This document shows, piece after piece, positions 30,544-63,610 of a stretch of DNA of 64,000 nt. Position 1 is the first letter of the stretch; the number at the start of each line of letters is the position of its first letter. Source of the DNA: Lonicera japonica. Taxonomy: Eukaryota > Streptophyta > Magnoliopsida > Dipsacales > Caprifoliaceae. Both the position numbers and the translations under genes were made by a program. The stretch covers positions 31,965,234 through 32,029,233 of the forward strand of contig CM038471.1 in the NCBI GenBank assembly GCA_021464415.1, read 5' to 3'. Below the pieces are notes generated by a model. That model saw only the letters and a program-made list of their open reading frames with translations, was not told where the DNA came from and ran no database searches.

Positions 30544-30632
30544 CTATTAAGAAAATAACATGAAAAAAAGAGAGGATAAATTATTACATTATATGCAAGA
30601 TAAGAAACAAATATGAATGATATGCTTCTTAC

Positions 30633-31722: not shown

Positions 31723-32507
31723 CTACAAATTCAATCGATTTGGATGAGAATGGTAGATGATTAGATATACCTGGACTATAATTAAAATTCCAAATATTGC
31801 AATAGTGACAATAATAAAAACAACAACAACATTAAAATAATGGTATTATCGCGAATTAAGATTCAAGTTCCTTTTTTAGTTCTACTCTTGTCCATAGATT
31901 ATGTTGATATCTTGTATTTTCTTTAAATTTGTGAAAGTTATATAGGAATGACTGAACTTTTAGGGAAGGCAAACCAGCGGAACCTTCACTATAACAGACT
32001 TCCTAATGGTTCACAAGTTCTGCTTTGAGTTTTTACTTCGTTTAGGACAAACAGAGTCAGAAATAAGGTACCCTTATTTCTTACTAAGTTATTAATGAAT
32101 TGGGAGCAAGATTGTTGAAAAGCTTAATTTGGCTCAGTGTGGAACTAGTCTTGGTGAGCTTAATGCGCGAAATGTTTTCATATATTGCGCACTGGGTTTG
32201 TACTCCCATCAACCTTGGACACTCTCTATTGCAGTATATTCAAATTTCAGAACATTTAACCTTGAAAAATGTTTAATGTAAGCTCTCCAGCGCATTCCCC
32301 TGTACCCATTAGTGCCTAAAATTATGACTGACTTGAAATAAATACAAAATCTTAATTTAGTTATAATTTCCAGATCAAATTGCTTAATTAGCCGGAAGAA
32401 CATCCAAATGGATGAACAGTGGACAACCATAAACTAAGTTAGGGTTCGGTTAGCTATGCTAATAGCATATTTAAGAATAACCAAAATAGCCTAAAACAAA
32501 TTCATGT
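31723..32507 (-). other. TNL intron 1, distal part
   Basis: Noncoding intron sequence between the copia insertion and the NB-ARC exon. It ends in a plausible pyrimidine-rich tract and TAG at 31725-31723. No gene or repeat recognised. Confidence 0.6.
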
Positions 32508-35229
32508 TGTTGGAAAATTAATCCTTAAAATCAACATGTCAAATCATTAAGATCTAAATTAAAACAAAGAAACCGCGTACCTGGATCCATGATAAACAAA
32601 AGCGGAATACAAGGATCGATCACAATAGCATCATGGATTGAGCGAGTACGTGGTCTTCCTCAACCAAATCGCCTTAGTTTCTTGATGAGAATTTTTGGTT
32701 CTCTTCCAGATGGGGAGAAGGGAGCCATATTTTGATTTGGTATGTTGGGGACCATAACCCTAATATTTTCTTTATATACAGACTAGTTAGAGTTCCCATT
32801 AAACCTTAACAAGTTCATATAAGGTATTTACACATTTGGCCCACATTTATTTGAGTAGTCTATGGGCTTAACTAAAAATCAATTAGACCACTAAAAATTA
32901 GCCCATTAATTTAAATAGTGAATATAATTGAAATATTATAATATGTTGCCCACATAAATTAGAAAATATAAATTTTCTAACAATCTCCCACTTGGGTTAC
33001 ATATTATTTCTGAAACAATTATATCACATAATTCTTTAAGCGTGCATCCGTATGCTATTTATTCTTAGACTTCTCCTTAAACAATCTGGTCTATCTCATG
33101 TACGAGTAATGTAATTATCGCAACTTTTATCACAATAATGTCATGACTAAACCACAATTATGTCATACTAATACACTTAATAACATAGATCAAATGTGGA
33201 TGAGTAGCATGGAAATTACATGCAATGTGATCTTCAACATGCCTATTTCCAACTGGCCCAATTTTAATAAGATCAACTTCAACCTTCTAAGATTTATGTT
33301 AAACCACAATGGAAGAAAAAAACAAACATCTAGAGTTAAGACAAAAATAAACCATCTTCTTTATTCTGCAGAAAATATGCGTCTAAATAAAAGAGCATTT
33401 ATGATACAAACTCCCACTTAATCAGCACATTATCAGATAACACAAAATTCATATGAGTAATATACTCATGAAATACCTTATGTGTTAAGCCTTTAGTGAA
33501 TGGATCTGTAATCATGGGGATTGTACTTATATGATCTATAGACACGATAACTCTGAACTTTTCTTTAACAACAAAAAACTTAATATCTATGTGCTTTAGA
33601 TTTCCGAAAAATTTATGTTGTTGTCGAATATAGCATAATCAATTTACTATAACAAAATATCTTTAGTGGTCTTTCGACACTATCCAAAATCCGCAGCCTA
33701 GTGACAAAATTTTGCAGCTATATCCCATCCGAAAATCGAAATCAGAATACCATATGATCTCTAACTGATTTGATTTTCGATACGTAAGTATATAGTCCTT
33801 TTGTTCTCTTAAAATACCGTATAAACCTTTAATTGGCTGCTTTTCGAAGATATATCACAGGGTTACTTAAATATCTGCCAAATATCTTTACTGTGAACGC
33901 TAAACCCAAATGCGTACATATTTTATGATACAGCAGACTCCCTACAATTGATGCATAAGGAATCTTTTGCATCTTTTTATTTTCAACTTTATTTTGGGGC
34001 ACTGGCTGTGACATAAATTGTCTCATTTCATGCCAAATCTGGTAAGAATTCTTTTGATATATCTCTTTTAAAATACCCGACAATAATGTCGATGTATCTG
34101 TATTCCTAATGCAAAAGAGATATTATCAACATAAAATACCATGAAGATAATGTTACTCCCACTGAACTTATGATATACATAATCATCAATCGGATTTAGC
34201 TCAAAACCGTACGAGATAATAACTTGATGAAATATGTAATACCATTGACGGAAAACTTCCTTAAGGCCATAGATGGATTTCTTTAATTTCACTTCTTTTT
34301 AAGATTGTTGAGTTTGCTATATAGAAAGTTTTTCAACATTGTCTTGATGATCTTAATTTGCATCTGAAATAATGTCGAAAATTTGTTCCTAATCATTGTC
34401 AATAGTAGTACTTGGAATTTGAAAAAATTCGTCTTCAAAGACAATGTTTCTAACTTTGTCTTCCCCCTCAAACTCAATAACCTTAAGAAATTTGGCATTT
34501 TTCATCTTAATAAAGGATTTATTCGAGGGATCATAAAATTTATAATCTCTCGATCTTTCAGTGTATCTAACAAAGTAGCAGCTAATTTTTTTTTAGTCTA
34601 ATCGGAACTGAAGAAATCACAAAACAAAAGGTCAACATCAACAACATCAATCTATATTTTCACACCTCATGTTCAAATATATTGATCCGTATGGTGTATA
34701 TATATATGTATATTAAATTCTTAATGATTTAACATGAGGTCGCTCTGATACCACTTGTTGAAAGATTAATCGTTAAAATCAACATGTCAAACCATTAAGA
34801 TCTAAATTAAAACAATAAAACCGAGTACCTGGATCCATGATAAACAAATGCGGAATACGATGATCAATCACAATAATAGCACGGATCGAGCGAGTACGTG
34901 GTCTTCCTCAACCAAATCGCCTTAGTTTCTTGATGGGAATTTTTGGTTCTCTTCCAAATTGGGAGAAGGGAGCCGTATTTTGATTTGGTGTGCTGGGGAC
35001 CATAACCCTAATATTTTCTTTATATACAGACTAGTTAGAGTTCCCATTAAACCCTAACAAGTTCATATAAGGTATCTACACATTTAGCCCATATTTATTT
35101 GAGTAGTCTATAGACTTAACTAAAATCAATTAGACCACTAAAAATTAACCCATTAATTTAAATAGTAAATATAATTAAAATATTATAATATTTTGCCCAC
35201 ATAAATTAGAAAATATAAATTTTCTAACA
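32508..35229 (-). mobile_element. Internally deleted Ty1/copia element in TNL intron 1
   Basis: Two ~475-bp LTRs (32508-32982 and 34756-35229) with ends TGTT...AACA flank 1.8 kb of internal sequence. The target duplication CATGT is exact at 32503-32507 and 35230-35234. The primer site GCTCTGATACCA (34743-34753; TGGTATCAGAGC on the minus strand) abuts the right LTR, so the element lies on the minus strand. A purine tract (AAGTGGGAG) adjoins the left LTR. I count about 30 differences between the LTRs. The intron would be about 0.9 kb without it. Confidence 0.92.
33829..34610 (-). pseudogene. Copia pol remnants (integrase end, RT, RNase H)
   Basis: On the minus strand, 34600-34500 encodes a decayed 'GYKFYDP'-type end of copia integrase. 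The frame 34292-34068 encodes RT with 'KLKKSIYGLKEVFRQWY' and a mutated 'YVDNI' where YVDDI is expected. The frame 34083-33829 carries the RT/RNase H connection ('YASIVGSLLY'). gag, protease and most of integrase are absent, so the element was non-autonomous or deleted. Confidence 0.75.
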
Positions 35230-35371
35230 CATGTACCCATCAAATTAAGGGTGAAAATGTAATATATGGAATGCTATAGTATATGGCAGATATATATATA
35301 TATACAAACAAATATATATACATATACACACATATGCATAATGAATTGAATAGTGAGGAATTTATGTGTAC

Positions 35372-35802
35372 CCATCAACATGGTGGTGCCCATTCAAGTC
35401 AGCTACTTCTTTAAGTGCTGATCTCCACCCTTGTATCTTTTCCATCCACGTTCTTTTTCCTTCTGAATCTGTTTTTTCATCACATTGCTTTTCGTATTTT
35501 GCAAATGCATCTGCTATCCTACCTTTTTGCTTCCGAACTTCGGATGGTTCCACATGGTAGAAGACAGGTAAAACCACATGCCCAGAGGTCCTCCTTCGTT
35601 CGAGAATCATCACTAGTTCATCAAGGCACCACGAAGAATACGCGTAGTTCTCCGAGATGACGATGATTGAACTCTTCGACTGAGGCACCGCTTTTTCTAA
35701 TTCTGACTTTAGACATTCGCCCTTCTGCACCTCGTCTTCGTCTCTAAATGTGCGGAATCCATGGTGGTTTGGTGGGATCTTATGACGACCATTTTATTAT
35801 CT
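35372..35802 (-). pseudogene. TNL exon 1: TIR domain, N-terminally truncated
   Basis: From 'GFRTFRDEDEVQKGE' on, a TIR domain is intact: beta-B and BB-loop, 'LKSELEKAVPQSKSSIIVISENYA', the catalytic-Glu region 'SSWCLDELVMILE', 'VLPVFYHVEPSEVRKQ' and the C-terminal helix up to 'HVDG'. The usual first third (beta-A strand and the helix before 'GFRTF') is missing, and two TAA codons lie in frame upstream near 35814. A remnant of the N-terminal leader 'SSAAPSIHFSLS' is visible in another frame near 35810-35850. No in-frame ATG precedes the domain, so no normal TIR could be made. Confidence 0.8.
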
Positions 35803-38163: not shown

Positions 38164-38543
38164 GACTGCTTTGCATCTCAAATTTTCCGTATATATATAT
38201 TAAAGGTGTAAGCAGTATATATATTAAAGGTGACCACTGCTTTCAGTATTTCAATTACGATATGACACTTGGGATAATGTGTGAGAGATAAGTAATGAAA
38301 ATAAGAAGAGAAATATATATTTACCTATAGTAAAGAGAGTGAGGGTTAATTTGAAATTTGAACTAAAGATCACGTATCTGTCATTCAAATTATATTATTT
38401 AATTAAGCTTTACAAAGTTTTATTACTTATATATTTTTTCCTTCTATATACCGTTAGTACCGTCTATTATCACTCCATATATTTTATTATTTTTGTGTAG
38501 ATATTAGTATTTAAATATATTTAAAGTTTACCTTATTTGATTG

Positions 38544-40087
38544 TGTAGACACCCCAATCCGTGACCCCTGCAAGAACCCTAACGACCTTCGAGATGTATT
38601 GTTTTTGGAGTCCGGGACCCACTCGAGCACCTGAGACTACCCCGAAAGGTTTTTTTGGCCAAACAAACCTATTTTTAAGGTGAATTATCCCACGACAAAA
38701 GAGTATGTCGCGCGACATACTCCCTTGTGTCGTGCGACAAACCTATCTGACACCAGACCATCCACTCTCTGACACATTAGTCTGTCAGAACCATCACTTC
38801 AGCCGTTTGTCGCACGACATACGTATGTGTCGCGTGACACTTGCCCTTTCTAGAGGAATGTCCCGCGACAATCTTCTCCGAGCACTATAAATAAGCCAAC
38901 ACCCCCAAGGGTTGAAGAGGAGGGGGGAGGACTTAGAATTGAAGAATTATTGGCTTATATCTGATTTTCTAGTCTTTTGTCAAGTATTTTCTATTGTCGT
39001 CTTATTTCTGAAGAATTATCGAATCTATTCCCGACACTCGACGTGTTCCATTTCTGGAATCGAATTCTTGGAAATATCTAAAGAAGGAAAAGATTATCAT
39101 CGCCGGAGATCTCTCTGCCGTATTATATTTTCTTTCTTATTATTATTCTCATCGTGAAGGTAAAGAAAGTCTCTTCTAGTATTTAAAATTGGATATCTAT
39201 GTACTTGTTTTACTTCTGTTGTTCAGTCCACGTTTTATTTGAATAAACTTATTGCCAAGTTACAAAGTAGTCTACTGTTTTCAAAACAAAAACAACCCTA
39301 ATAAAACCATTTCCAAAAATTCAGAAGAATAAGTACATTATCATTCGGATAAAATTCTGTTTTCAAAACTCGGACTGATAAGACTTATCTAGGAATTAAA
39401 AACAACATATCATGTCTTTCTTATAAACTGTGATGTGTCTGATAAAACTCCCCTCAAAAAGTTCTAATTTCATATTAAATTAGTCCCGCTACAAGATCCG
39501 AACTTTTACAAAAATATTCAAAACACGAGAAAACCGTCATTATCTAAGGAAATAATACGGGAAACTCTCTCAAAATAAAAGGTTTTGTCATTAGTATTTA
39601 CATCTTTCAATAATAAAAACATCGGATCTCGGAACACAAAGGTTTTTATCCCTTTTTCTGTTTTCCCAAAAAATTAGGGTTTTTCATTTGGGAAGTAGTA
39701 GACCGTCAGTAAAAGCATCCAAGTTTTTCGACATAAAATAAATATATAAAAGACCACTAGAGACCGAAAGGGCGGAATGGGTGCTTAACACCTTCCCAAA
39801 CTGTAATATAGTTTTCGAATCATATAGAACCCTGGTTTTGCAGACAAACGTGTAAAGAAAGGCTTTTCTGTAGTATTTCTTCTTACACAACTATTTTGTC
39901 CGTTTTTTCGTAAAACATACTGGCGACTCTGAACGAACTCTCTTGTATTTAAAACTAGGATAAAGGGACACCCGATATGAATTATTAACACTCATAGAAG
40001 CAAATGGAACGACAGAATCCGTTCCGACGTTTCAGGCACCCAACAAAGGGATCGAGAACCCGGGGGTCGCATTTGCGGATTCTCACA
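38544..40087 (+). mobile_element. Solo LTR of a Tat-like Ty3/gypsy family
   Basis: A 1544-bp LTR starting TGTAGACACCCC and ending ATTCTCACA, flanked by a perfect 5-bp duplication GATTG (38539-38543 and 40088-40092). It is the same family as the 3' LTR at 49591-54954 (minus). It has five copies of the TGTCGCGCGACA-type palindrome (38706-38870), a TATA box TATAAATAA at 38886-38894 and a transcribed leader downstream. No internal region remains. Confidence 0.9.
38706..38894 (+). promoter_or_regulatory. Palindrome array and TATA box of the solo LTR
   Basis: 12-bp sites start at 38706 (TGTCGCGCGACA, within a 22-bp perfect palindrome 38701-38722), 38728 (TGTCGTGCGACA), 38808 (TGTCGCACGACA), 38828 (TGTCGCGTGACA) and 38859 (TGTCCCGCGACA). 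The last ends 15 bp before TATAAATAA at 38886. Most variants are single CpG-to-TpG/CpA changes of one parent site. Confidence 0.85.
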
Positions 40088-40092
40088 GATTG

Positions 40093-49590: not shown

Positions 49591-49869
49591 TGTGAGAATC
49601 TGCAAATGCGACCCCCGGGTCTCAATTTCGAGTTTGGGCGTCTGAAACATCAAAATGGATTCCGTCATTCTATTTCCTTCTACGTGTTTTTAATTCATAC
49701 CGTGTGTCCCTCTATCCTATTTTTAGATGCACGAGGGTTCATTCAGAGTTGTCAATACGTTGTACGAGAAAACGGACAAAATAGTTGTGTAAGAGGAAAA
49801 GCTATAGATAAGCCTTTCTTTACACAATTTTATATGAAACTAAGTTCTATAGGGTTCGGGAACTATGTT

Positions 49870-52800
49870 TGTAACACCCCGTTCCTCCGTTTCTTCGTAG
49901 TTACCTTCATTAGTTCGTAAATTTCACCTCGGGTGGTGAAATTGTGTATTGAGGAGCCTCATAATGTTCTAGCACTCTGTATTAGTTATATCAGTCTACC
50001 TACACTCATGTGAGTAATCGTTTAGTGATTTGGGTGGTCTAAATCAATATCGGCTCTTAAATCATGAGTTTTGGCCTTACGTGATTTCTTGTTTTTAGCC
50101 AACTTTGGAGCAGCGTAACTTCTTTGTTCTTTGCCAGATTGAGTTTCCTTTTGCTTTAGGGTCTAGATTTTTATGCAATCTATAACTTTTGTGTTTTGGC
50201 CAAAAGCCAATTCAGGCTCCAACTTGGTCAAAATTGAGAGTGAAGTAAGCCCATCGCTAAATTCTGTGCGTTCGGTAGTCCTTTGGCAGAGTACTGTTTT
50301 CAACAAATTTTTGGGAAGGATCTATCCATAATTTGAGAAAACTTTCTTCTATGAAGTTATAAATCTTTAAAATACCTTTCCATGGACATAAGATCACTCC
50401 AATCGAAGTTCCGAGCGAAAAGTTGTGGCCAAATTACGAACAGTGGTCTAGAGATGCAAATTTATAGCACGGACCCGTATGGGCATTTTGTGGACCAGTC
50501 CGACACTTGCGCTGGGCGTATTTTTGGTGTATAAACCAAATTAGTGGCCCCTCTTCTTCTCATTTTCGAGCTACACAAGGGAGAGGATTTAGAGAGAGAT
50601 GAGAGCTCATTTTTAGGGAGTAATTGACAGATCATTGGGCATCCTTCATCCATACATAAAATCCCTACATAATTAACACCAAATCATCCTCCTAGCACTA
50701 CTATTCATCGTCTTCTTCCTCCTTCCTTCCTCCATGGATGCTTGAGCTTGAGTAGGGCTTTGGGATACAGTGTCTACGCTTTGTCTATTCAAGGATAAAG
50801 CTTCTCTAAAGTGGGAACACTAGTATTAAACATATTTTTCCAATTATTACATGTTGAATTAGAGTTTTCTACTCAAAATGGGTATTTTCTTAAAAACCTA
50901 GGCTTGTTGCATTTCATGGGGTTTGGGTGAGATTAGTCTCTGATTAGTGATGGATATTGATAGATTATCACTACTATAACATGATTGATCATCTAGTTCC
51001 ACAATTTAGCATGTGTATCTAGAGATTCATATGGAACCTTTTTTGTAGCTAAGCGTATGAACCCAAATTTTGGGATTTTGGGTTTTAAACATATAAAGTG
51101 ATCGATTAAAGGTTATAGATGATAGATTATGACTTTAATCATATGATTCGACAAATAGATACACGTTTTAGCTCACACACCCATGGATATATGATGAACC
51201 CACTTCGTAGATACTAGTATGACTTAAGAATTGGGGTTTTGGGATTTAGGCCTAAAGGATGGTTGATTGTGGATTATAAATGGTAGAGATATGAATTTAT
51301 GATGTTAGTAACAAGTGTAGAGCCTTATCCATGTGTTTGCCTAATAGTTACAAAGGTGGAACCATAAGTAGTAACATGGAAATCTAGCGTTCCACGTAGA
51401 CCATTGTTGATATTATTAATGAGTACACCACTCAGATATACTCGATTAATGTGTGTAATATAACCTTGTAAGGTGTAGGTTGCCTCAACCATGGTGAGCT
51501 GTATTCATATGCCGGCTAGGCTAGTAACATATTATTCGATACTTGGCTTGATTAAATGTATTTTGAACTATCATAAAATACATACGGCCTTAGTTTGATA
51601 CCCATAACACATAATAAGATATATGGCGCGAATAATAAGCTAGTTGGCCTTATAATGTGAATAACCACGTGACTGTAACCATATGTAGTATACACGTGAT
51701 GAAGACGCTTATAGAAATTATTAACGACGATGTTAATGATGATAAATGGATAGTGGGCTGTGATAGATTGTATTTATATATGTGATAGCCATATGTGTGA
51801 TGATGATGTGATTGATATTACTTATATTGTTGGGAAATGGAAATGATATTCCCGGTTATTGCGATCACACATATGGGTTGGATTATTGGACATAGCAACG
51901 GGTAGCTCCCGCGTGACTCGAAGACGGGCCGCCTATTTGCTGCCCGTGTGTGAAATTCCCTAAATCGTGCACAAAAAAAAAGGATCGGTGTACTCCACTG
52001 GGTGGTTGAAATCCCACGAAAGGAGAGCCCACTCTTTGTATAATGCCTTCCAACTTGACTATGTGTTTTTGGTTAAACGAATTTTTTCGACAAGCGGAGT
52101 AGGTCCCGTGTGCCACTACTATCCAATTGTTGAGTTTCTCAGATAGTAGTTAAACTACTAATGGACACTACCCTGCTAGGGGGTCTCATGGTGTAGTTCT
52201 TTCTAGAGCGTCGATGTGGCTTGTATGAGGTGTTCTCCTCGTTAACTATTCGGAGTGTCATTCCCGGGAAAATATCTTGAGGGTTATCTCCGAATGCCTT
52301 ACTTAGAGAACTAAGTCCCTGAGCCACTCCCCACTCGGAGGAGACATGGATAAGAGCCTCGGAGCCTTCAGAATCTGTTGTTCTGGGCCTAGACGACCCC
52401 TGGGTGAAACTGAGGCATTATGCAAGAGATATGATATGGATTGATGCGATCTGTTTGTATATTATTATTATTGTTATTGTTATTGTATCATATCTATGTT
52501 GTTTATGTATATAACGCCTCGGATGTGATAGGAATCATGTTATTTGATTTCGGACACGATTGGATGAATCATAATACACATAGGATAGCAATGGCCACTC
52601 ATAATGTACTAACGCATAAAAAGAAAGTTATAATGACTATTGGCCCTTAGACAAGATATAGGAGCGAGAGAATACTCATCGATAATTTAGAGAGTTGCCT
52701 TGAACATAATGAACATAAATTACTAATAATTAGAGAGGTAATCATAGCTAACAGATAGCTTAATTGGAGACACCGTAGCATAACGACTTGTAAGGACGGT

Positions 52801-53714
52801 GAGAAGTAAAGCTTATTAGTCTGCCAAGCATGGACATTCATAATGAACTAATCTCAAAGAGAAAACGATAAATGCTTGGCTATTAGTAAATGACTTCGGG
52901 TATATGTGCGGGATAGCGTGAGGTTGGTTTAATATACTTTAGAACCCTTCCGCCATAGTATGGCGAACAATAGGAAGCTACTATTTATGAAGAGACGGTT
53001 TCATACCAACGCTCCACTAGTGACTTAGGAATGTGTAGAGATCCATTCCATGGAAAGTCTAGGGACGAGATCGGTCAATTGGATAATTAGATTCTGGTGG
53101 CTAGGATAAGAGTCCTAGTGGGGGTCGGCATGCACGTGTGTGTGGGTTGCATTGCATAAGCATTGTTTCTAAACCATTGCAACAAAATAAAGCACTTATT
53201 TTCTATTAAAACCTACATAGTTTCCACTGAGCTTGGATTTGGCTCATTCCCTCCTTTCAGTAGTTTTGTAGGTTCTGCTTCTGGGATGGCACGTGATACT
53301 CAAGTATAAAAGCCTCTTATGACTTTGGACCGATCCTAGTCCTTTATGAGAAGGACTGTGTTATATATTTGTTTGTTTTGGTTTTAGTGTATTGTATATG
53401 AACCATGGTTTTATGTATGAACTATATTTTGGCAAACTTGTGCAAATGGGTTTCATATGTGGAGTGGTTTTAACGTGGAATATTTGTATTGGTACTTGTA
53501 TATAAATGTTTTAATTTTTACAAGGACGTTTGCCATTTGAACAAACTCCATATGTCGAATTTTTCTGAAAACAGGATTTTTTATGGATCATATTTTCTTA
53601 AGAGAGTTTTTAAAAGTCATTGTTTTTATATTTTAAACCGGCCGTCGCGCACGGCATCCGTGATTAACCGAGTCCCGGAGGTGAAGATCTCAGAACGGGA
53701 TTTTGGGCGACACA
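49870..53714. mobile_element. 3.85-kb solo LTR inserted in the 3' LTR
   Basis: Begins TGTAACACCCCG and ends GGGCGACACA (TG...CA), with a perfect 5-bp duplication ATGTT at 49865-49869 and 53715-53719. No open frame over 80 codons and no internal duplicate LTR were seen, so it is most simply a very long solo LTR. LTRs of this size occur in the Tekay/Del chromovirus group; the lineage is a guess. It fills the whole 49.9-53.7 kb interval; no gene is present. Confidence 0.8.
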
Positions 53715-54657
53715 ATGTTACGGATTAGGAAGGTGTTAAGCATCCATTCCGTCCTTTCGGTGTTTAGTGATTTTATATGTTTATTCCATGTTGAAAAACT
53801 TGGATGCTTTTACTAACAGTCTATTACTTTCTAAAAATGACTTATAAGAAACCCTAATTTTGAGGGGAACGAAGAAGGGGAAGAAAACTTTTGTATTCCA
53901 CGATTCGATGTTTTGGTTTTGAAAATACAGTACAAATGATAAAATTTATTTTTTGGGTTTAAAAGAGGTATTCTGGCATTGTTTCCTCAGATAACAATGT
54001 CGGTTTTCTCGTTTTGATTATTTTTGGAAAAGTTCAAATATTTATCGAGACTAAATTAAATATGGAATTTGAACTCTTTGAAGGGAGTTTTATCAAATAT
54101 GTCGTAGTCTATAGGGAAGACGAGACAATCCTGAATTCAATTCCTAAGTAAGTTTTATCGGACCGGGTTTTGAAAACTTAGCTTTATCCAGGTGGTAAGA
54201 TTCTTATTTTTCTGGTTTTATAATTGATTTTTATCAGGATTTTGTTTTGAAAATAGTAGACTATTTGTAATATAAGTTTATTCAAATAAAAGGCGGACAG
54301 AATAACAGATAATTAATTAAACAAGTACACAGATATCTAATTTTAAATACTAGAAGAGGACTTTCTTTACCTTCTAGACGAGAAATATAATAATAAAAAC
54401 GAGAAAATATAATACGACAGAGAAACCTCCGGCTATAATTAGCTTTTCCTTTTCAAATATTTTCGAGAATTGGATTCCAGAAGTGAGGCACGACGAGTGT
54501 CAAGAATATATTCGAGAATTCTTCAAAAATCAGACAATCGCAAAATATACTTGATAAGAGACCAGAAAATCAGATAGAAAGATAGAATTCTTAGGTCCCA
54601 ACTTGCTGCCCCAAAACCCTTGGGGGTCTTGGCTTATTTGTAGTGCTAGGGAAGGAT

Positions 54658-54812
54658 TGTCGGGTGACATTTGGACCAATGTCACGTGACAAACGGCTGA
54701 AGTGACTTTCCTGATAGATTGATTTGTCAGAAAGTGCTTAGTCTATGTTTGGGAAACTTGTCGCGCGATATAAGGGTGATTGTTGCGCGACATATTGGTT
54801 TGTCGCGCTATA
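54658..54812 (-). promoter_or_regulatory. Palindrome array in the 3' LTR promoter
   Basis: Sites start at 54658 (TGTCGGGTGACA), 54680 (TGTCACGTGACA, a perfect palindrome containing a G-box core), 54759 (TGTCGCGCGATA), 54781 (TGTTGCGCGACA) and 54801 (TGTCGCGCTATA). Spacing mirrors the solo LTR array in reverse: two pairs about 20 bp apart separated by about 80 bp. The nearest site lies 15 bp from the TATA-like box. Confidence 0.8.
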
Positions 54813-55134
54813 ATCTATCTTAAAAACATGTTTATTTGGCCAACAAACCCCTTCATGGCAGTTTTGGGTGTTCAGGTGGGCCCCGTACTCCAAAAATCAT
54901 GCTTTTTGATAGTTGTTAGGGTTCTTGTGGTGGTCACAGAATGGGGTGCTTACAAACCCTCTCGACTCAAGCTCATTGTCTGTAAGGAATTGAGGCGACT
55001 GGCAGAGACCATGGTCCATGACTCTCGCAAAAACTCTAAGAGAGTGTGCGCATGTAAAAGTGTTTGTGAGTGCCTCTGGAGAGGGCTTATACCTGTATAA
55101 AGGACTTACACTGCCTCTTGAAGAGGGCTTTTGT

Positions 55135-55625
55135 TACCTTGTTGCCTCTCTGGAGGGTTTGATTTTCTCCACTTGCCTAAGATGGGGAGGACTACCATTT
55201 TGTTCCACTTGTCTCAGGTGCGAGGGCTACCATTTTGCTCCAATGCCTCTTTGGGAGGATTTGATTCGCTCGCCTCAGATGGGAGGACTACTATTTTTCC
55301 ACTGCCTCCTTGGGAGGACTTGATCTGCTCGCTTCGGATAGGAGAACTACCATTGCTCCACTGCTTCTCTGGGAGGACTTGATCCACTCGCTTCGGATGG
55401 GAGAACTACCATTGCTCCACTACTTCTCTAGGAGACCTTGATCCGCTCGCCTTGGATGGGAGGACTACCATTGCTCTATTGCCTCTCTAGGAGGACTTGA
55501 TATTCTTGCCTCGGATAGGAGAACTACCATTGCTCCACTGCCTCTCTGGGAGGACTTGATTCACTCGCTTTAGATAGGAGGACTACCATTGCTCTGCTGC
55601 CTTTCTGGGAGAATTTGATCTGTAA
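55135..55625. repeat. Minisatellite, ~60-bp monomer, about 8 copies
   Basis: Units resemble 'GCCTCTCTGGGAGGACTTGA' followed by 'TCCGCTCGCCTCGGATGGGA' and 'GGACTACCATTGCTCCACT'. Copies recur about every 60 bp with point differences. It lies in the region between the antisense PMD gene promoter and the 3' LTR. Tandem repeats in this 3' region are known from Tat/Ogre elements. Confidence 0.85.
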
Positions 55626-56600
55626 AATAGAAAAATGAAAAACTACCTCCGGGGAAGGCTTTGTGAAGGTTTTGCTTCTAAGAGGGCTTAGCGTTTTTGC
55701 CTGTCGAAAGGACTTATATTGCCTCGGAAGAGGTCTTTGTTCGAATCTGTCTTGATGAAAAATGGGTTCTCTATATCTTTCTTCAACTGCTAGATTGAGA
55801 GAGAGAAATTTATGTGGGTGAGGGAACTCATCGAGAGTTATTCATACTCTAATTTGGAGAAACTTTTTTTAAAAAAAATTTGCTTTGTCTTATCACTTTA
55901 TTTCCTAAACGAGGTGCTCTTTAGCCAAAATGGCTTCATGAACCTTTATATCTCTTTACAAAAATGATGATTCCATCCCTTGCTTGTTTCCCAGTTGTTA
56001 CTTCTTAATTTTGCTGAAAAAAAAATTTGCTTGAAGGGAATCTCTGATCTCTTTTGACATTTGGCTTTTCTGAGGTGTTTTGTGGGCCCACTTCGTTTTC
56101 TGTTTTTTTATGTCCTTATTTCTCCCTCAATCGGGGAAGCTTTTCCTAGTCTTTTCCGTTTTTGGCTAGGAGCTTCTTGTCTAATTTGGCGTGATCAGGA
56201 GCCTTACTCACCCAAGACGAAGACCTGAGCCGTTTTAGCCTAGATGTCACTCTTGGTGTGGCTCTCCCTGTCACTTTATTCATTTCTGTTTCTCTCACTT
56301 GCCCTGGGCCCCCGTGCCGGATTTTTCTCTTTTATACTCTTTTAATTTTTTCTATTCCCGTCTTATTCTAACATTTTCTCGTTCTCGTTGATGGTCTCAG
56401 TATTTTGAGAAAAAAACAGAGATTCCTTAACGGATGGATTTTCCTTTTGTGATTATTCTAGAGAAGCAACTGGGAAATTTCACTTTCGATATTTATCTCG
56501 AGTGTACAGTTTTATACAAATGTCAAGAAAACTATTTTTCGAAGTATCCCTGTAGGAGAAAAAATGAGACAAAGGTAAAAAAAAACAGGGGGGAGGGGCA
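55626..56600. other. Noncoding 3' region of the Tat-like element
   Basis: Sequence between the minisatellite and the antisense promoter. It is pyrimidine-rich in places and contains further 'GAGGGCTT' or 'GGAGAGGCTT' words related to the minisatellite edge. No gene recognised. Confidence 0.5.
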
Positions 56601-56603
56601 AAG

Positions 56604-56687
56604 TATCACGCGACACTTCGGTGGGAAGCCATTTGTCGGGCGACAAAATGACCATTTGTCACGCGACAAATATGTCCAGTATATAAA
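56604..56687 (+). promoter_or_regulatory. Antisense promoter 1: three palindromes and TATA box
   Basis: Sites TATCACGCGACA (56604-56615), TGTCGGGCGACA (56634-56645) and TGTCACGCGACA (56657-56668) precede TATATAAA at 56680-56687 by 11 bp. CT-rich leader sequence and the first exon of the PMD gene follow on the plus strand. The same palindrome stands at the same distance from the LTR TATA box. Confidence 0.75.
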
Positions 56688-57066
56688 CCGAGCGCATTCC
56701 ACTGCATTCTTCCTTTTCTCTTTCTCTCTCTAGCCCTCTCTTCTTTCTTCTTTCTAGCGTGGAAGCCCTACCGTTTTAGGTTTTTACTGACTTTTTGCTC
56801 CGCTATTTTCCCTTTATCCTCGTGGACCCTTCTCAGCTGGACCGACTAGAAGGTGACGAGGAGGAGGTCACTTTCATCGATGTTTAGGGAGTTTTACGGT
56901 GTAGCCCTCGTCATGATGACTGGGCTAATATTGATTGGTATAGTGAGGACGGTTTGCATCGCGATCGTGCTATGGTTTACTGAGACGTTACCTGAGCTGC
57001 TCCAGTTCCAGATGTTCCTTGTCTTCTGATGGAGCCTGTCTCGCATTAGATCTGTCAACGATCTCT

Positions 57067-58018
57067 GGTATGTCTTCTAGAGATCCTTCCGTTTATGTAT
57101 TTATATATGTTTATCCTTAAAATGTTATCTTTGTCGTTTCCTACATATTTAGATAATCTATAGTTTAGTACACATGTTTGCCATGATAATAATATTTGAT
57201 TTAGGGAAACACATACTTTTACTGTAGTACCCTTAGATTTTTAGGAAATTACATAATTTCCCCTCATAAACCCTATAACTCCCATATTTATACCAAAATA
57301 CTCTCAGGTTTTGGAAATTACATAATTTACCTTTATAAACCTTATATAACTCTCATAATTACACCAAAATACCCTCAGCTTTTGGAAATTACATAATTTG
57401 CCCTTATAACCCATATAACTCTCATAATTACACCAAAGTACCCTCAGGTTTTGGAAATTACATAATTTGCCCCTATACCTTATATAACTCTCATAATTAC
57501 ACCAAAGTACCCTTAGATTTTGGAAATTACATTATTTACCCTTATAAACCCTGTAACTCTTATAATTATACCAAAATACCCTCAGGTTTTGGAAATTACA
57601 TAATTTTGCCCTTATAACCCATATAACTCTTATAATTTCACCAAAATACCCTCAAGTTTTGGAAATTACATAATTTTCCCTTATACCCCATATAACTCTC
57701 ATATTTCACCAAAATACCCTCAGGTTTTGGAAATTACATAATTTGCCCCTATACCCTATATAACTCTCATAATTACTCGAAAGTACCTTCAAGTTTTGGA
57801 AATTACATAATTTACCCTTATGAACCCATATAAGTCTCATAATTACACCAAAATACCCTCAGGTCTTTTACATAATTTATCCTTATAAACCCATATAACT
57901 CTCATAATTATAACAAAGTACCCTCAAGTTTTTGAAAATTACATAATTTTGCCCCCATAACCCATATAACTCTCATAATTACTAATATATGCATATATAT
58001 CGGTTTGTCATCTGTAGT
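57067..58018 (+). other. Inferred first intron of the antisense PMD gene
   Basis: Starts GTATGTCTTC after the exon 1 reading frame and ends with a pyrimidine-containing tract and CTGTAG before 'TGGGTTGGCCGAGG'. It is AT-rich and is mostly filled by the 70-bp minisatellite. Exact boundaries are a prediction. Confidence 0.5.
57215..57985. repeat. Minisatellite, ~70-bp monomer, about 11 copies
   Basis: The unit contains 'ACCCTCAGGTTTTGGAAATT', 'ACATAATTTGCCCTTATAAC' and 'CATATAACTCTCATAATTAC'. 'GGAAATTACATAATT' recurs near 57241, 57310, 57381, 57453, 57521, 57592, 57660, 57729 and 57796, with a shortened copy near 57865 and a last one near 57935. Confidence 0.88.
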
Positions 58019-60602
58019 GGGTTGGCCGAGGTTAGGGTTCTCGCAACACCATATCTTTTGAGTGGCGACAAGCACCGGCCCCTATACAGGAGTGTCTTTT
58101 TACGACTTCGTTTGGCAATTTTCTTAATGCCTTACCAGAGAGGGTATGGGCTGTAGTACTTGTGTCGGCCCTTGCAACTCACTGGTGGGACACTACACAC
58201 ACATTTCACTAAAGCTAGGGAGAGATGACGATGACTCCCCTAGATCAGTTTGCCTTGACCGGTATAACCTCGGGGGGTGTTCCTATCCAGATCGATGTTC
58301 CCCTATACCTCTCCTTTGAGGGTATAGTTGGTGCTTTAGGGTGGTTTTTGGAGCTATAGAGTTCGGGTGATACCATCCCTCGGGCTGTCTTGATCACACA
58401 CTTGGTGATGGAGAGGGCTAGGTTGGTTGCTACAGAAAAGCAGATGACTAGGCAGGAGGCGCGCCAGTATGCTTGTGTTTTGCTATTACTGATGCTCCAT
58501 GATTTGTTTGAGGCCCGTGGGGGAAATACGGTCCATCTGTGGTGGCTACTCTATATTCAACATTTCAGCCTCATGTTTGACTATGACTGGGGGAGGTTTT
58601 ATTCTGGCCGTCCTCTATGATGCCATGGATCAGGTCTCTCGTTATTTGGCCCTGAACCTTAAGGGCTTTTCTCTATTGTGGGAGGTATAATTTTTTTACT
58701 TTTACTTACTTTATGCCTATATTCGTCAGTCAATTATTGTTAATATTCTTTATGCTCTATTCTCTTTTTCAGAGTTGGTTTGTGGCATACACTCGCCGAG
58801 GTCTCACCCAAGTAGATTTGTTCATTGAGAATGAGGATCATTTTTCGCTTCTCCGCTGGTTCATAGGAGGAAACTACAAGACTCCTTATGTATATCGGAC
58901 CCGAGAGACCGGGGAGACTGCTGTTCATGACCTGTTAGAGGAGCACGTAAGTATTTAGTTTGATACTATTTATCTTAATTAAATATATACAAAATAAATG
59001 ACTGAATGATTTTTATTCTTCTCTTTTCAGATTGACTGGGCCCTATGGGGTGATTTAGGCCTTCATTTTGGCTATGCTCGGGCTTTGATTGATTTGAGGA
59101 CTAAACGAATGATCCGAGATGAGTATGGCCTCTTATTTTATCTCGGTGAGCAGGTCATTCATCAGTACACACAGGCTCAGTGGCTTTGGGTTCTGTCATT
59201 TCCACAGACTTTGATGAGGCGGACAAGCAAGATTGACCCAATGATGGTGCAGGCTTTAGTGGATTGGCTCAATTTTCAGACCTTCGTCTAGGAGGGTGAC
59301 TATGCCCTCTTTGTGGCCCCATACTTGATGAGAAAACGGAAGGGGACTCTAGGCCGGGTCTTCTACTAGCGATATCGGGTGTTAGGTGGTGATCCTAACT
59401 ATAAACGGGGGCAATCTCATCTGTCTAGGATGGTCTCGGGACACCTACCACCTGTCCTAAACCAGAGGGACAATATCCTTAATTTAGATGACGAGTACCC
59501 GGAGGGAGATTGAGAGGCACTGCCAGCTGAAGGTGCTGGTCCTGAGGGAGGAGAAGGAGACAATAGTTCCTGAGCAGTCGACGTTCCTGACCAGACACCT
59601 CAGACTACACCTGCGGAGGATCCTCGGACCAAGACCGAACGATTTTTAATTTCCTATAGGCCCTTCGATATGTTTAGGGGTCATATTCGATGAGGCTGAG
59701 GTTGCAGAGAGAGGAGGTACTGGTTTCATAAAGAGGTCCTGGGAGCCTGAGGACTTCAGAGCAGATTTCAAACAGTTCGGGCAGACCCCTCCTGCTGCGG
59801 CAGCCAATCTTTTAAGAGGGGTTTCGCCTTTGAGAGAGACCGCTGTCGCAGATCCCCCAGGCATTTGGACGTATGCCATTCTTAACCTTTATCACCGACC
59901 GCTATGGGCCCTTCAGCTCGATCTCCAAGAGTCAATGTCTTATCCATTAGGCCTCCCCTGTTCTTGATTCATGAGGAGGGTGGGTCTACCTCCGCTGCGG
60001 CCCCCGCAGATTTGTCTGCTCCCGTGGTTGACATACCATTATTACCTCGGGATATCTCTTATGTCGGTGCTGGTCTACGCCGATACACGGTGCCAAAGTA
60101 TCCTCTTCCATATGGCACCTGAAGTTATTTAGGTGGACGTACAGGTGACGAGGTATAAACTTTTTTTCTTCCTTTTAATGATGCTTCTCCATACCTGTTT
60201 ATTGATTGTGTTAATCCTCTTCTCTTACGTCTTTTCCAGTTGGTGAGCATACGTGCGGCGGATCTGCGAGCTGTACATGCCTAGTATTTCTACAACTGGA
60301 ACCTTCTCTAGTTTGTAGGTCGGGATCCTATGGTGTATATGCAAGATTACCAGAGGGCGATCAAGGTCTCTTTGCGAGCAGACGACCCCTTGACTTCTTC
60401 TCGCACGCAGAAGGAATCTTGGAGGAGTAGTAGCAGGCCTTCTAAGCGCTCGAGGTCTTCGGCAATTCTGCCTTTAGCTTCTGCTCGTACATCTGAGATT
60501 CTTACTGTGGAGATAGTGCGGCCAGCCGTTGATCTTACCCGGGTTACCCATCCACCTGAGGAGGCGTTGGGCGATAGTGAGAGCGTGTCGAAGCACCCCT
60601 AG

Positions 60603-60930
60603 ATAGATTAGGTTTATTTCCTACATTTTTATTTAGCACTTTGGACAAAATGTAGTTTGGACAAAATGTTAGTAGTTAGTTAGTTTTGAGTTTTGAAAAC
60701 TATTTTTGTTGGATTTATATCTTATATATATACTTCTCTTATGTGTTTATAGAAAATATATATATATATATATTCAAGTAGTGTTTAGGAATCATACCAT
60801 TCGTTCATACGGTATAAAGACTATTTATGGTCTCTGTAAAAAAATAAAGTAAGTACAAGGCATGCAAAGGTGGTTCTTTTGGCAAGAATGATTTTACATG
60901 CTTTAAAAGGAGAGCAAAAGGGGTAAAAAA
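60603..60930. other. Spacer between the two antisense genes
   Basis: Noncoding, T-rich, with a TA microsatellite near 60754-60770; it may hold the 3' UTR of the PMD gene. No motif beyond that recognised. Confidence 0.5.
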
Positions 60931-60937
60931 TGGGGTT

Positions 60938-61015
60938 TATCGTGCGACAATCCTCCCTGGATCTAGGTTTGTCACACGACAAACAGGCACAGGAACAATT
61001 TTTTTGCTATAAATA
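60938..61015 (+). promoter_or_regulatory. Antisense promoter 2: two palindromes and TATA box
   Basis: Sites TATCGTGCGACA (60938-60949) and TGTCACACGACA (60970-60981) precede TATAAATA at 61008-61015. CT-rich leader and a second plus-strand ORF follow from about 61110. It is the third independent promoter in this element family with this layout. Confidence 0.7.
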
Positions 61016-61109
61016 CACCCATATTCCTTCCTTCATCCTCATACCTTCCCTCCTTTGTAAAAAAAATATCTTCTTATCGCACAAATTTTGACTTATATCG
61101 AAGCCTGAG

Positions 61110-62333
61110 ATGCCTTAGTATCTTTCGAGATTGGTTTGAACTTTGGTGCTTTTCGCCCTCTAGCGGTGTAGGGTTATCCTCCTGTAGATTTCTCTTTTAT
61201 GTTGGGTGCTTCGAATTTTTGGAGTTCTACAAACCATCTCTTTCTCTTCGGATAAGCTCTGCCCGACTTACGAGGAATTCTCATGGCTTCTACACTCCGA
61301 CACCGGTCTCTCGATGGCTGTTCTTATAGAGGACATCGGTCCTCGGGATATGCTGATTGCTTTATTGTCTATTTCCCAAGTAGCCTGTGATGGTTTCATA
61401 ATTGACAGGCTTCTCGACCTTCACAAAATGGTGAGGTTCTTTTATCATTACGAGGATAGAGCCTCCTATAGTGTGGGGCGCACGGCGGTGGCCTTGATTT
61501 GCCTTGTTTCTGACATGTTACTGATGACAGGTTCCTCCTGAGTCGATTCGACTATTCTAAGTTTGATATATCGAGCTAGAAATGGAGAGTCCATAGTGCC
61601 TATCGTTCTTGCAGAGACTTTGAATTGACTGGATGCTATTTTGGGTGGGTCCTCGACTTTCTTTAAGGGGAGTTTGCGTCTTCTCTATATGTGGCTACTG
61701 GAGTGCTTCCATTATGTGGGCTTCAATTGAGTGCGGCTGTACAATCCTACTCACTTCTTTCGTCGGCCCATTTTTAGTTCTTTGACCATGTCTTCCTCTA
61801 CTTGGACGAATTGGTTTTCAGAGAATTTTTACGTCATTTGGTGGAACATTCCCTGGTGGAAGCTAAGGATGATGGTGTTTAGTACTGGCGATCAGAACTA
61901 TGTTCCGCTCTGAGGACTCTGGTTTACTTGGTTCTATCTCCCGGGTCATCTTCTTCAGCAATTCAATATACCTCAGAATATCCCCCTAGGTTTAAACAAC
62001 TTATCCTCAGAACTTAAATTTGTAACTCTGCACGTTTCTCTATCTGTGGAGCGGATGTGGCATGCTCGAATAACCGGACAGTTTAATCATGCTCGTTTCA
62101 GTATTAACCGGCCCCTCTAGGCTGACATCATTCATTCCCATTGGCAAACTTTGGAGGAAGAAATGGTCAATGACCCTTACCAGATGGAGTGGTTCCAATT
62201 CATAGATTCTGAGCCTGCTAGGGAAAATAGCATCTTAACGTACCAGATTCTAGATGAGGCTCGAATTGTTTTGGTTACTGAGGACCCTGCCTGGCAAATC
62301 CTAAGGCTTAGGTTTTACTGTATCTTGTATTAA
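61110..62333 (+). pseudogene. Second antisense accessory ORF (DUF7745-like), one frame with nonsense codons
   Basis: The plus-strand reading frame through 61206, 61731 and 62151 is continuous for about 375 codons, broken only by nonsense codons (TGA at 61539-61541, near 61626, 61728 and 61911-61913; TAG near 62118). Blocks 'KLCPTYEEFSWLLHSD', 'LYMWLLECFHYVGFN', 'TWTNWFSENFYVIWWNIPWW' and 'MMVFSTGDQNYVPL' resemble the PTxEEFxxLL and WW..........L.G regions of plant retroelement accessory proteins of the DUF7745/PMD-like kind. That family call is tentative. The true start codon is not certain. The product may act with the PMD protein, but its role is unknown. Confidence 0.5.
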
Positions 62334-62640
62334 TAGTCTTCTTTGTAACCTTCGGTGTTTTGAACCACCATTTGAATAATGTATAAGAAATTGTTTGATC
62401 TTCGAACGAAAAGTTTTCATTTATAATGATTAAACTGGATCTGAAATCACTTCTCAGGTTGCCTATATTCCCCATTTGATTTTAAAAAACACAAGTTGAG
62501 TTGGTGCTTATGTTCACGTAGTTCTTAGCTATACATGATACATTTATTGGAAATACTTCTTCAGACAATCTATGTTGACTGGTGAATGTAGCAACTGTAC
62601 ATTTAAGTTCATGAGCACAGCGGCTGGCTCATCTTGTATC
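62334..62640. other. Convergent spacer between antisense ORF and pol
   Basis: Noncoding region where the plus-strand accessory ORF and the minus-strand pol gene end tail-to-tail. An 'AATAATGTATAAGAAA' stretch at about 62375 could serve polyadenylation. Nothing else recognised. Confidence 0.5.
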
Positions 62641-63610
62641 AATTTCTTTAACGATGTACGACCAAGTCCACTTTTGTCCGAACTTTTCCCTTGGATCTCT
62701 AACTAGTTCTCGGATCTCTTTCAATACGATGTCGTTCTCACTGATAGCCCAAGTCTTTACTTTCTTGTTGAAGGCTCGAGTGATTCTCTTCTGATACCCT
62801 AATGGTGATATGCAGCTTTCAATCTTTTTTCGTCTAACAGTGCCAACTCAGTGTAACGTGCTTAGACCCATTCCAACTCATTGATTTGATTTTATAACAC
62901 TATTTTGAGGGAAGGGATTTTTAACTTAACAGGGAGGATGGCTTCCATCCCGTATGTAAGTGAAAATGGGGTTGCTCTGGTAGAAACTCTCTCGGTGGTG
63001 CGATACCCCCGCAACGCATAAGGTAATTTCTTTGGCCAGTCCTGGCATGTGTCAGTCATCTTACTCAGTATATTCTTTAGGTTTTTATTGGCAGCCTCAA
63101 CTGCCCCATTGATCCGTGATCTCTACGGAGAAGATATGTGCCTAGTGATGCCATATTCTTCCATGCCACATTAGCCTCTCCTTCAAAATGGGTGCCGTTG
63201 TCCGAGATGATCTCATGTGGAACTCTATATCGGCAGATGATGTTTCGTCTGATGAACTAGGCAACCTTTCTGGCATCAAGTGTCCTGAAGGATTCAGCTC
63301 CTACCTATTTGGTGAAATGATCGATGTCTATTAGTGTAAACTCGTGGTCGTTACTTGCTTTGGGTGAGATCTCTCCAATAATGTAGATTCCCAAGGTTGC
63401 GAAAAGCAGGAGGGCAGTTATATTGTATAATTTTTTCGGAGGAAGCTTCTGAGACTTGGCATAGATTTGACATTTATGACAACGGCGCATGTGGTTATTG
63501 CAGTCGTTCTGTAGGGTTGACCAGTAGTATCCTTGTTTGATAATTTTGTGGCCATCGTATGGCCACTCATGTGGGGTCTGCAATCTCCCCCATGTATTTG
63601 ACCCATCATT
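62640..63610 (-). pseudogene. Ty3/gypsy integrase
   Basis: On the minus strand: zinc-binding region with 'GYYWSTLQNDCNNHMRRCHKCQ' (open 63583-63305), then the catalytic core with the first Asp in 'LIDIDHFTK', the second in 'ISDNGTHFEG' (near 63207), and the Glu in 'NGAVEAANKNLK' (near 63085). 'LPYALRGYRTTERVSTRATP' and 'SLTYGMEA' follow near 63030-62935, then a decayed C-terminal region. All three DDE residues are readable, though the frame is broken by several stops and frameshifts. The family match is to Tat-type integrases. Confidence 0.82.

What the first reader, a model, noticed from the sequence alone, without database searches (positions are those of the whole stretch)
54658..61015. 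One 12-bp palindrome (TGTCGCGCGACA) stands before the LTR TATA box and before both antisense gene TATA boxes of the same retrotransposon
Seen: 5 copies in the 3' LTR (54658-54812), 3 copies at 56604-56668, 2 copies at 60938-60981, and 5 copies in a solo LTR of the same family (38706-38870). In three of the four arrays the last site ends 11-16 bp from a TATA-like box; in the fourth about 26 bp. Most variants are single CpG deamination products of one parent site, so the exact word was once selected. Inference: a common DNA-binding factor, host or element-encoded, may control sense LTR transcription and antisense accessory genes together. The TGTC half-sites recall auxin-response-factor elements, and TGTCACGTGACA includes a G-box; a VANC-like element-encoded regulator is another option. 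I know of no description of this layout.
Basis: partly seen in the sequence, partly recalled or inferred. Interest (0 to 1): 0.88.

Follow-up and report, generated by a model that had tools for sequence, protein, structure and literature searches.

The report
Shared control sites in plant retrotransposon
A very abundant plant jumping gene carries the same 12-letter mirror-image DNA word, at nearly fixed distances, in front of its main promoter and in front of two genes that it encodes on the opposite strand, which suggests that one unknown protein switches all three together.

Summary
In the window's 886-Mb plant assembly the exact word TGTCGCGCGACA occurs 29,561 times, the same word read backwards once. 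It stands 8-28 bp upstream of a TATA-like box at 6,081 places (control 0). Of the first 100 listed, 65 are LTR promoters (gap 15-16 bp), 16 promoters of antisense gene aORF1 (gap 11), 18 of aORF2 (gap 26-28) and 1 other. Selection without the word agrees: 938 of 1,091 aORF2 cores have intact TGTC....GACA arms upstream; 8 of 9 aORF1 promoters reached through LTRs have two or three sites. Sites diverge less than spacers: 19% against 33% in LTRs, 10% against 34% in aORF1; for aORF2 this depends on the region compared. Short spacings cluster near 2 and 3 helical turns. aORF1 of a relative encodes a plant mobile domain (PMD) protein. Best reading: a shared operator for a dimeric regulator, probably element-encoded. 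That last step is inference: no DNA-binding domain was recognised and binding cannot be tested here. Ten searches of an open-licence library listed no description of this layout.

The parts
38544..40087 (+). solo LTR of the same family (1,544 bp), flanked by the target-site duplication GATTG (38539-38543 and 40088-40092)
   Evidence: blastn against the 3' LTR; ends and GATTG read by eye
38686..38870 (.). palindrome array of the solo LTR: 38686 (weak), 38706 (exact word), 38728, 38808, 38828, 38859
38886..38893 (+). LTR TATA box TATAAATA, 15 bp after the last site
   Evidence: read
49591..54954 (-). 3' LTR of the element (element on the minus strand), interrupted by a nested insertion of about 3.8 kb (about 49870-53711)
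   Evidence: 5' LTR outside the window at L009 7483-9001; flanks CATAA / CATAC, 4 of 5 alike
54658..54812 (.). palindrome array in U3 of the 3' LTR: 54658, 54680, 54759, 54781, 54801
54635..54642 (-). degraded LTR TATA box (TACAAATA), 15 bp from site 54658
   Evidence: read
56604..56668 (.). palindrome array of antisense gene aORF1: 56604, 56634, 56657 (spacings 30, 23)
56680..56687 (+). aORF1 TATA box TATATAAA, 11 bp after the last site
   Evidence: read; same gap in 16 of 16 listed aORF1 matches genome-wide
56783..60608 (+). decayed antisense gene aORF1; plant mobile domain part about 58018-58810; tandem array 57212-57989 in between
   Evidence: tblastn of L030 pieces; PMD PF10536 E 1.1e-15 in relative L030; tandem array seen
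60938..60981 (.). palindrome array of antisense gene aORF2: 60938, 60970 (spacing 32)
61008..61015 (+). aORF2 TATA box TATAAATA, 26 bp after the last site
   Evidence: read; gap 26-28 in 18 of 18 listed aORF2 matches (the pattern allowed 28 at most)
61091..62306 (+). decayed antisense gene aORF2, function unknown
   Evidence: tblastn of L030 pieces; no Pfam family above cut-off
62547..63529 (-). integrase end of pol, marks the sense direction of the element
   Evidence: tblastn; Integrase_H2C2 E 2.5e-5, just below its cut-off, in the window; rve E 1e-9 in L030

Best explanation
The palindrome is a selected operator: the binding site of a sequence-specific factor that binds as a symmetric dimer and sits, in arrays spaced by about two or three helical turns, just upstream of the TATA box of all three promoters of a large Ty3/gypsy retrotransposon (LTR sense promoter, aORF1, aORF2). 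Shown here: the same word at the three promoter types, a nearly fixed distance to TATA for each type, retention across thousands of copies, and less divergence than the spacers in LTR and aORF1. Inferred: that a protein binds it, and that the protein is made by the element itself (the PMD protein of aORF1 or the aORF2 product), giving an autoregulatory circuit that turns the sense transcript and the antisense genes on or off together. As the exact word holds three CpGs, binding is likely to be sensitive to, or to oppose, host CG methylation (inference).
For: Word count 29,561 against 1 for the backward word. Word plus TATA: 3,017 + 3,064 places, control 0 + 0. Of the first 100 listed: 65 LTR, 16 aORF1, 18 aORF2, 1 other; seven elements within 17.5 Mb of contig C1 have the exact word at LTR, aORF1, aORF2 and second LTR; opposite strand to the nearest listed LTR in 12 of 12 and 15 of 15 aORF matches that have one within 20 kb. 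Word-independent samples: 938 of 1,091 aORF2 cores with intact arms upstream; 20 of the 100 listed cores fetched, 19 with two or more sites, 16 with an exact word, against two or more sites in 15 of 10,000 shuffles; aORF1 8 of 9 with two or more sites, the ninth with one site and no recognisable TATA box. Divergence of 26 LTR arrays from L030: sites 253/1312 non-CpG and 155/871 CpG positions, spacers 1070/3265 and 32/104; moving the site mask by 6-16 bp raises divergence from 0.17-0.19 (offset -2 and 0) to 0.28-0.40. aORF1 array, 6 copies: 19/192 against 52/152. Spacings under 60 bp are all 20-23 or 30-34 bp in the arrays; Rayleigh p about 0.001 at period 10.5 for 11 classes chosen by hand. 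For element encoding: the exact words in the listed sample belong to element arrays (50 of 50; 46 by a neighbouring word only), and site number varies between subfamilies (5, 6, 8-9 in LTRs; 2 or 3 in aORF2), as targets of VANC vary between related elements in PMC5735166 (passages).
Against: No binding, expression or methylation data exist here. Neither antisense product shows a recognised DNA-binding domain (pieces scanned), and both structure models are too poor to use (mean pLDDT 48 and 42). Copies are related, so counts are not independent; the divergence samples include the near-duplicates WIN and L010. An aligner can pair non-homologous copies of a repeated word, which lowers apparent site divergence in LTR arrays; some short arrays are visibly split that way. 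Only 72 of 218 array sites are perfect palindromes, and in the common LTR subfamily some positions regularly end in GATA instead of GACA (changes at position 11: 46). In aORF2 the site advantage (14/72 against 92/279 in array plus upstream) disappears when the TATA and transcribed part is included (14/72 against 95/461). The aORF2 pair shares spacer edges with a distal LTR pair (score 2.67 against -3.88 shuffled), so one may be a copy of the other; aORF1 and LTR spacers show no such similarity. The 79-81 bp gap inside the LTR array is not a whole number of turns, and periods of 10 and 11 bp fit as well as 10.5.
Confidence: 0.55

Rival explanations
1. Same operator, but the factor is a host transcription factor (B3/ARF, bZIP, CAMTA, E2F-like or unknown; candidates recalled) that the element captured; sense and antisense promoters are simply tuned to the same host signal.
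For: TGTCNN half-sites are ARF core elements, and reporters with TGTCGC and TGTCAC have expression domains in roots according to PMC10690724 (passages). No DNA-binding domain found in the element's antisense products.
Against: The whole 12-bp palindrome, not a half-site, recurs. Spacing 0 is not among the preferred IR7/IR8. In the 50 exact words listed none was seen outside element arrays (46 judged by a neighbouring word only). Nearly 30,000 copies would titrate a host factor (inference).
Confidence: 0.33
2. No regulator: the arrays are tandem or duplicated sequence carried along by the element and shared by descent between LTR and internal promoters.
For: aORF2 and distal LTR pairs share spacer edges; array size varies between subfamilies; site advantage in aORF2 depends on the region compared.
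Against: Sites are less diverged than spacers in LTR and aORF1; aORF1 and LTR spacers are not alike beyond shuffles; the gap to TATA is nearly fixed per promoter type while its sequence varies (29 of 65, 10 of 16 and 11 of 18 distinct); CpG positions of the sites are no more diverged than the others, although methylated CpGs mutate fast (general knowledge; methylation here unknown).
Confidence: 0.07
3. The word serves chromatin or nucleic-acid structure rather than a classical transcription factor, for example as a dense CpG target for silencing, a cruciform, or an integrase or packaging signal.
For: Three CpGs per exact word in dense arrays; perfect palindrome.
Against: Position is tied to TATA boxes at internal antisense promoters too, which no packaging or integration role needs; no array lies in the gag, RT or integrase stretches of L013, L025 and L030; a cruciform would not need one exact word.
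Confidence: 0.05

Closest known systems
Maize Grande gene23 and Retand/Tat antisense ORFs (PMC7264820: passages; PMC11963269: abstract, section 11 part 1 of 2 and passages; the Gomez-Orte 2013 paper itself not seen)
   Same: Antisense genes between pol and the 3' LTR, in Grande with their own promoter; products proposed to be regulatory; tandem arrays in the same region.
   Different: No TRP28 domain found in the pieces scanned, but a PMD protein; LTR and pol-3' LTR region longer than the published Retand range; no shared palindromic operator is described in what I read.
VANC / VANDAL anti-silencing system (PMC5735166, passages)
   Same: A short motif repeated in arrays in non-coding parts of the transposon, varying considerably between related elements.
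   Different: VANDAL is a DNA transposon (recalled); the VANC21 motif is YAGTATTAY, not a CpG palindrome next to TATA boxes; VANC21 binding is shown in vivo and in vitro, here no binder is known.
Arabidopsis PMD proteins MAIN/MAIL1 and the DOWN motif (PMC7156037, PMC9899485, passages)
   Same: PMD proteins linked to a promoter motif and to transposon silencing.
   Different: The DOWN motif in the MORC1 promoter is CATGCAGTTT, unlike this word; direct binding is unproven there too.
Spm TnpA 12-bp sites, papillomavirus E2 12-bp palindromes beside TATA, HTLV Tax/HBZ (all recalled, no call)
   Same: Element- or virus-encoded regulator with arrays of short sites near its own promoter; sense and antisense control in HTLV.
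   Different: Different proteins and words; not known from plant LTR retrotransposons as far as I recall.

Membership tests
Plant Ty3/gypsy, Tat/Retand lineage | gag, protease, RT-RNase H, integrase of gypsy type | tested here: met
   Retrotrans_gag 6.7e-20, RVT_1 3.7e-28, RT_RNaseH_2 1.1e-17 in L025; rve 1e-9 in L030; protease only 7.3e-5, below cut-off
Plant Ty3/gypsy, Tat/Retand lineage | antisense ORFs between pol and 3' LTR | tested here: met
   aORF1 and aORF2 opposite to integrase; opposite to the nearest listed LTR promoter in 27 of 27 cases
Plant Ty3/gypsy, Tat/Retand lineage | TRP28 domain (PF04195) in an antisense ORF (97% of clusters in PMC11963269) | tested here: not met
   no hit in 7 open antisense pieces of L030 or 5 frames of the window; pieces, not complete genes
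Plant Ty3/gypsy, Tat/Retand lineage | LTR 315-1,194 bp and pol-3' LTR region 2,933-6,566 bp (PMC11963269) | tested here: not met
   LTR 1,544 bp (solo); about 7.6 kb between 54954 and the integrase match end 62547
Plant Ty3/gypsy, Tat/Retand lineage | additional archaeal-type RNase H (recalled hallmark of Tat) | tested here: inconclusive
   RVT_3 fragment E 0.041, below cut-off
Plant Ty3/gypsy, Tat/Retand lineage | RT phylogeny | not tested
   no reference RT set was used
ARF auxin response element | TGTCNN half-sites | tested here: met
   TGTCGC on both strands of the word (sequence)
ARF auxin response element | dimer spacing IR7/IR8 | tested here: not met
   spacing 0 between TGTCNN units; rule
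VANC-type self-targeting system | short motif in arrays in the element's own non-coding regions | tested here: met
VANC-type self-targeting system | element-encoded protein that binds the motif and removes silencing | not testable with these tools
   needs binding and methylation data

The most novel reading that the evidence does not exclude
A plant LTR retrotransposon with a true regulon: its own antisense-encoded PMD (or aORF2) protein is a sequence-specific, CpG-palindrome-binding regulator that controls its own gene, the partner antisense gene and the genomic sense transcript, and competes with DNA methylation at these sites. It would give a transposon PMD protein a target word and would suggest what the domesticated host PMD proteins (MAIN, MAIL1) once did.
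Probability: 0.33. Interest if true: 0.9.

Novelty: new variant of a known kind. Interest (0 to 1): 0.76.

Why it matters
The function of antisense genes in plant Ty3/gypsy elements is stated to be unknown in the two papers seen on them (PMC7264820, PMC11963269; passages). A single word with thousands of natural copies, nearly fixed geometry and natural variants gives a direct assay: find what binds it. If the binder is the element's PMD protein, that gives a DNA target to a domain known from host silencing proteins. The host carries almost 30,000 exact copies, so the factor's level could matter for the whole genome (inference).

Tried and rejected
Rejected: DOWN motif of PMD mutants (CATGCAGTTT); ARF dimer site as such (spacing 0). 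Chance: excluded. aORF1 array as a copy of the LTR array: spacers not alike beyond shuffles. Tried without much result: protein search with an 86-aa piece (none), with an aORF2 piece (3 relatives without Pfam domain) and a PMD piece (7 relatives, all PF10536); IMG/VR scans for arrays and integrase (none); solved structures for PMD (best E 0.7); structure models (no fold search made on them); the word in papers (one and four papers, judged unrelated from the listing, not opened). A first divergence count for aORF1 and aORF2 had an off-by-one error and was replaced. Never answered: the genome-wide count of TGTCNNNNGACA, a PMD family search, the exact-word count at aORF2 cores and the counts of aORF1 cores.
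Full report
What was checked. The window is contig C9:31965234-32029233 of an unnamed 886-Mb assembly. It holds TIR, NB-ARC and LRR pieces and plant-type retrotransposons, so the host is a plant (inference). Coordinates, numbers of sites and distances to TATA-like boxes are as reported. One statement was too strong: only 5 of the 15 variant sites are single CpG transitions, although CpG transitions make 13 of 23 changes.

Anatomy. The element is on the minus strand. Its 3' LTR (54954 to 49591) carries a nested insertion of about 3.8 kb; its 5' LTR lies beyond the window (L009 7483-9001, 87% identical over the longer and 82% over the shorter matching part), and the flanks are CATAA and CATAC. 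A solo LTR of 1,544 bp with identical GATTG flanks lies at 38544-40087. Between pol and the 3' LTR are two decayed genes in antisense. aORF1 (56783-60608) matches a gene whose relative in L030 contains a plant mobile domain (PF10536, E 1.1e-15, 58.2 bits against a cut-off of 34.9); in the window copy no family is found. aORF2 (about 61091-62306) has no family above cut-off; weak hits were DUF7745 (0.0062, window), PMD (0.06) and DUF364 (0.06-0.084) in L030, and smaller pieces gave DUF1985 (0.17, aORF1) and W_rich_C (0.11, aORF2). Integrase follows on the minus strand.

Other copies, LTR. A DNA search with a 191-bp stretch holding the array gave 40 scored places among 925 candidates. Regions around 20 of them were fetched; in each of the 20 at least three sites with up to 3 changes form an LTR array. 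These copies were picked with a query that contains the array, so presence is expected; divergence is the informative part. Against L030, 26 LTR arrays differ at 253 of 1312 non-CpG and 155 of 871 CpG site positions, but at 1070 of 3265 non-CpG and 32 of 104 CpG spacer positions (L030 and its partner L031 left out, gapped positions left out, only 4 CpG positions in the spacers; the window copy and its near-duplicate L010 both counted). Moving the site mask gives the lowest divergence at offsets -2 and 0 (0.168, 0.187) and 0.28-0.40 at offsets of 6-16 bp. An aligner can pair unrelated copies of a repeated word, which helps the sites; flanking matches argue that most pairs are homologous, but I did not measure this bias. 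Copies share ancestry, so I give no p-value. The word is not perfect everywhere: of 218 clustered sites 64 are exact and 72 perfect palindromes, and in the common LTR subfamily some positions regularly end in GATA.

Other copies, antisense promoters. Of these 38 regions 9 show homology downstream of the aORF1 TATA box, judged without the sites; 8 of 9 have two or three sites upstream, and one (L037) has one site and no recognisable TATA box (site rule: at most 4 changes, at most 2 of them not CpG transitions). One of the 9, L010, is a near copy of the window (98%). Random 130-bp stretches of the same regions have two or more sites in 60 of 7600 (other arrays in the regions were not removed). 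In the aORF1 array sites differ from L030 at 19 of 192, spacers at 52 of 152 positions (6 copies with WIN and L010 among them). For aORF2, 3 of the 38 regions show downstream homology (the 18 short ones could hardly reach it); two have two sites, and L025 has a deletion there, beginning inside its first site. aORF2 sites differ at 14 of 72, array plus upstream spacers at 92 of 279; if TATA and transcribed part are included the spacers fall to 95 of 461 and the contrast is gone (3 copies).

Genome-wide. The exact word occurs 29,561 times, the backward word once. Of the 50 places listed (0.56-4.54 Mb of C1) 46 have a second exact word within 160 bp; most of these were not fetched. The other four, fetched as L032-L035, lie in two LTRs, one aORF1 and one aORF2 promoter. 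The word followed within 8-28 bp by TATAWAWR occurs at 3,017 + 3,064 places, control 0 + 0. The first 100 listed (0.57-17.44 Mb of C1) fall into 65 LTR (gap 15 in 60, 16 in 5), 16 aORF1 (gap 11 in all), 18 aORF2 (gap 26 in 15, 27 in 2, 28 in 1) and 1 other (classes set by me from gap and TATA form; wider gaps than 28 could not appear). The gap sequences vary (29 of 65, 10 of 16, 11 of 18 distinct). Seven elements show the exact word at LTR, aORF1, aORF2 and second LTR, with the LTR promoters 16.9-17.6 kb apart. Of the aORF matches with a listed LTR within 20 kb, 12 of 12 and 15 of 15 are on the opposite strand; 4 aORF1 and 3 aORF2 matches had none.

Selection without the word. The 20-base aORF2 core TTTGCTATAAATACACCCAT occurs 1,091 times; 938 of these (86%) have intact TGTC....GACA arms 13-30 bp upstream, control 0. 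Of the first 100 cores listed I picked 20 by hand at roughly every fifth place and fetched 120 bp upstream: 20 have at least one site, 19 two or more, 16 an exact word; the spacing is 32 bp in 18, and five have a third site 32 bp further, three of these with the same sequence in the part printed; shuffles reach two sites in 15 of 10,000. In L056 one extra weak word was counted as the last site and gave a spacing of 15. The same count for aORF1 cores did not complete.

Geometry. In the arrays spacings under 60 bp are 20-23 or 30-34 bp; longer ones are 79-81 or 100-102 bp. The exact-word list also has 43, 54, 65 and 145; the 43 holds a one-change site (L031), the others were not looked at. For 11 spacing classes that I picked by hand, the fit to a 10.5-bp period gives R 0.78 and p about 0.001; it is suggestive only, and 10 and 11 bp fit as well. 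The 79-81 bp gap is not in phase and was left out of that test. LTR and aORF1 arrays have nearly the same spacing pair (31, 22 and 30-31, 23) though their spacers are not alike beyond shuffles; the aORF2 pair shares spacer edges ATCC...GGTT with a distal LTR pair, tested on 4 and 3 copies, two of which are the LTRs of one element.

Interpretation. Same word, same side of the TATA box, three promoter contexts, retained better than its surroundings in two of them: a protein-binding operator is the simplest reading. Symmetry suggests a dimer and spacing suggests cooperation (inference). Who binds is open. I lean to an element-encoded factor because the exact words in the listed sample belong to element arrays, array size changes between subfamilies as VANC targets do (PMC5735166, passages), and antisense genes of such elements have been proposed to be regulators (PMC7264820, PMC11963269). 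Against it, no DNA-binding domain was recognised and the structure models are not usable. The sign of regulation is unknown: a site 11-28 bp upstream of TATA could recruit or block. My estimate is 0.85-0.9 for a selected shared operator and about 0.5-0.6 for element encoding given that.

Lineage. gag, RT-RNase H and integrase are of gypsy type and antisense genes lie where Retand and Grande have them, but TRP28 was not found, LTR and pol-3' LTR lengths are outside the published Retand range, and RT phylogeny was not tested. I therefore call it a Ty3/gypsy element with Tat/Retand-like antisense genes and do not file it as Retand.

Novelty. The exact word is in one paper, on a chicken gene, and its 10-base core with 'plant' in four papers on other subjects by title. 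Searches on PMD, antisense ORFs, Tat and palindromes, on ARF (46) and on VANC (77) listed no description of such a layout. Only open-licence PMC papers are held, most listed papers were not opened, and Gomez-Orte 2013 on the Grande promoter was not available to me, so this is not proof of absence.

Noticed in passing
28516-35793 (minus strand): A TIR-NBS-LRR type disease-resistance gene or remnant: TIR (7.3e-31), NB-ARC (3.3e-27), Roq1-like winged helix (4.6e-17) and LRR pieces in separate open frames.
   Followed up: no
927-26162: Several long repeats within the left part of the window, many inverted (for example 927-3396 against 18011-15529, 85%, and 3391-4942 against 13632-12100, 88%), suggesting a locally duplicated, inverted cluster.
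   Followed up: no
57212-57989: Tandem array of about 70-bp units within the aORF1 region, as described for the pol-3' LTR region of Retand elements.
   Followed up: no
55200-55620: A second, degenerate tandem array (units about 60 bp judged from blast offsets) between the 3' LTR and aORF1.
   Followed up: no
L010 (C9:31927900-31937800): A second copy of this part of the element, with matching stretches at 95-99% identity, about 92 kb away: a recent local duplication.
   Followed up: partly
49870-53711: Nested insertion inside the 3' LTR, about 3.8 kb, type not determined.
   Followed up: no
L030 404-415 and 260-279: The LTR array also contains a related word TGTTGCGCAACA and, in its 80-bp gap, an inverted repeat CTGACAC...GTGTCAG, of which similar forms are seen in other copies.
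   Followed up: no
L059, L062, L064, L071, L072: aORF2 promoters with three sites at 32-bp steps, perhaps one subfamily.
   Followed up: partly
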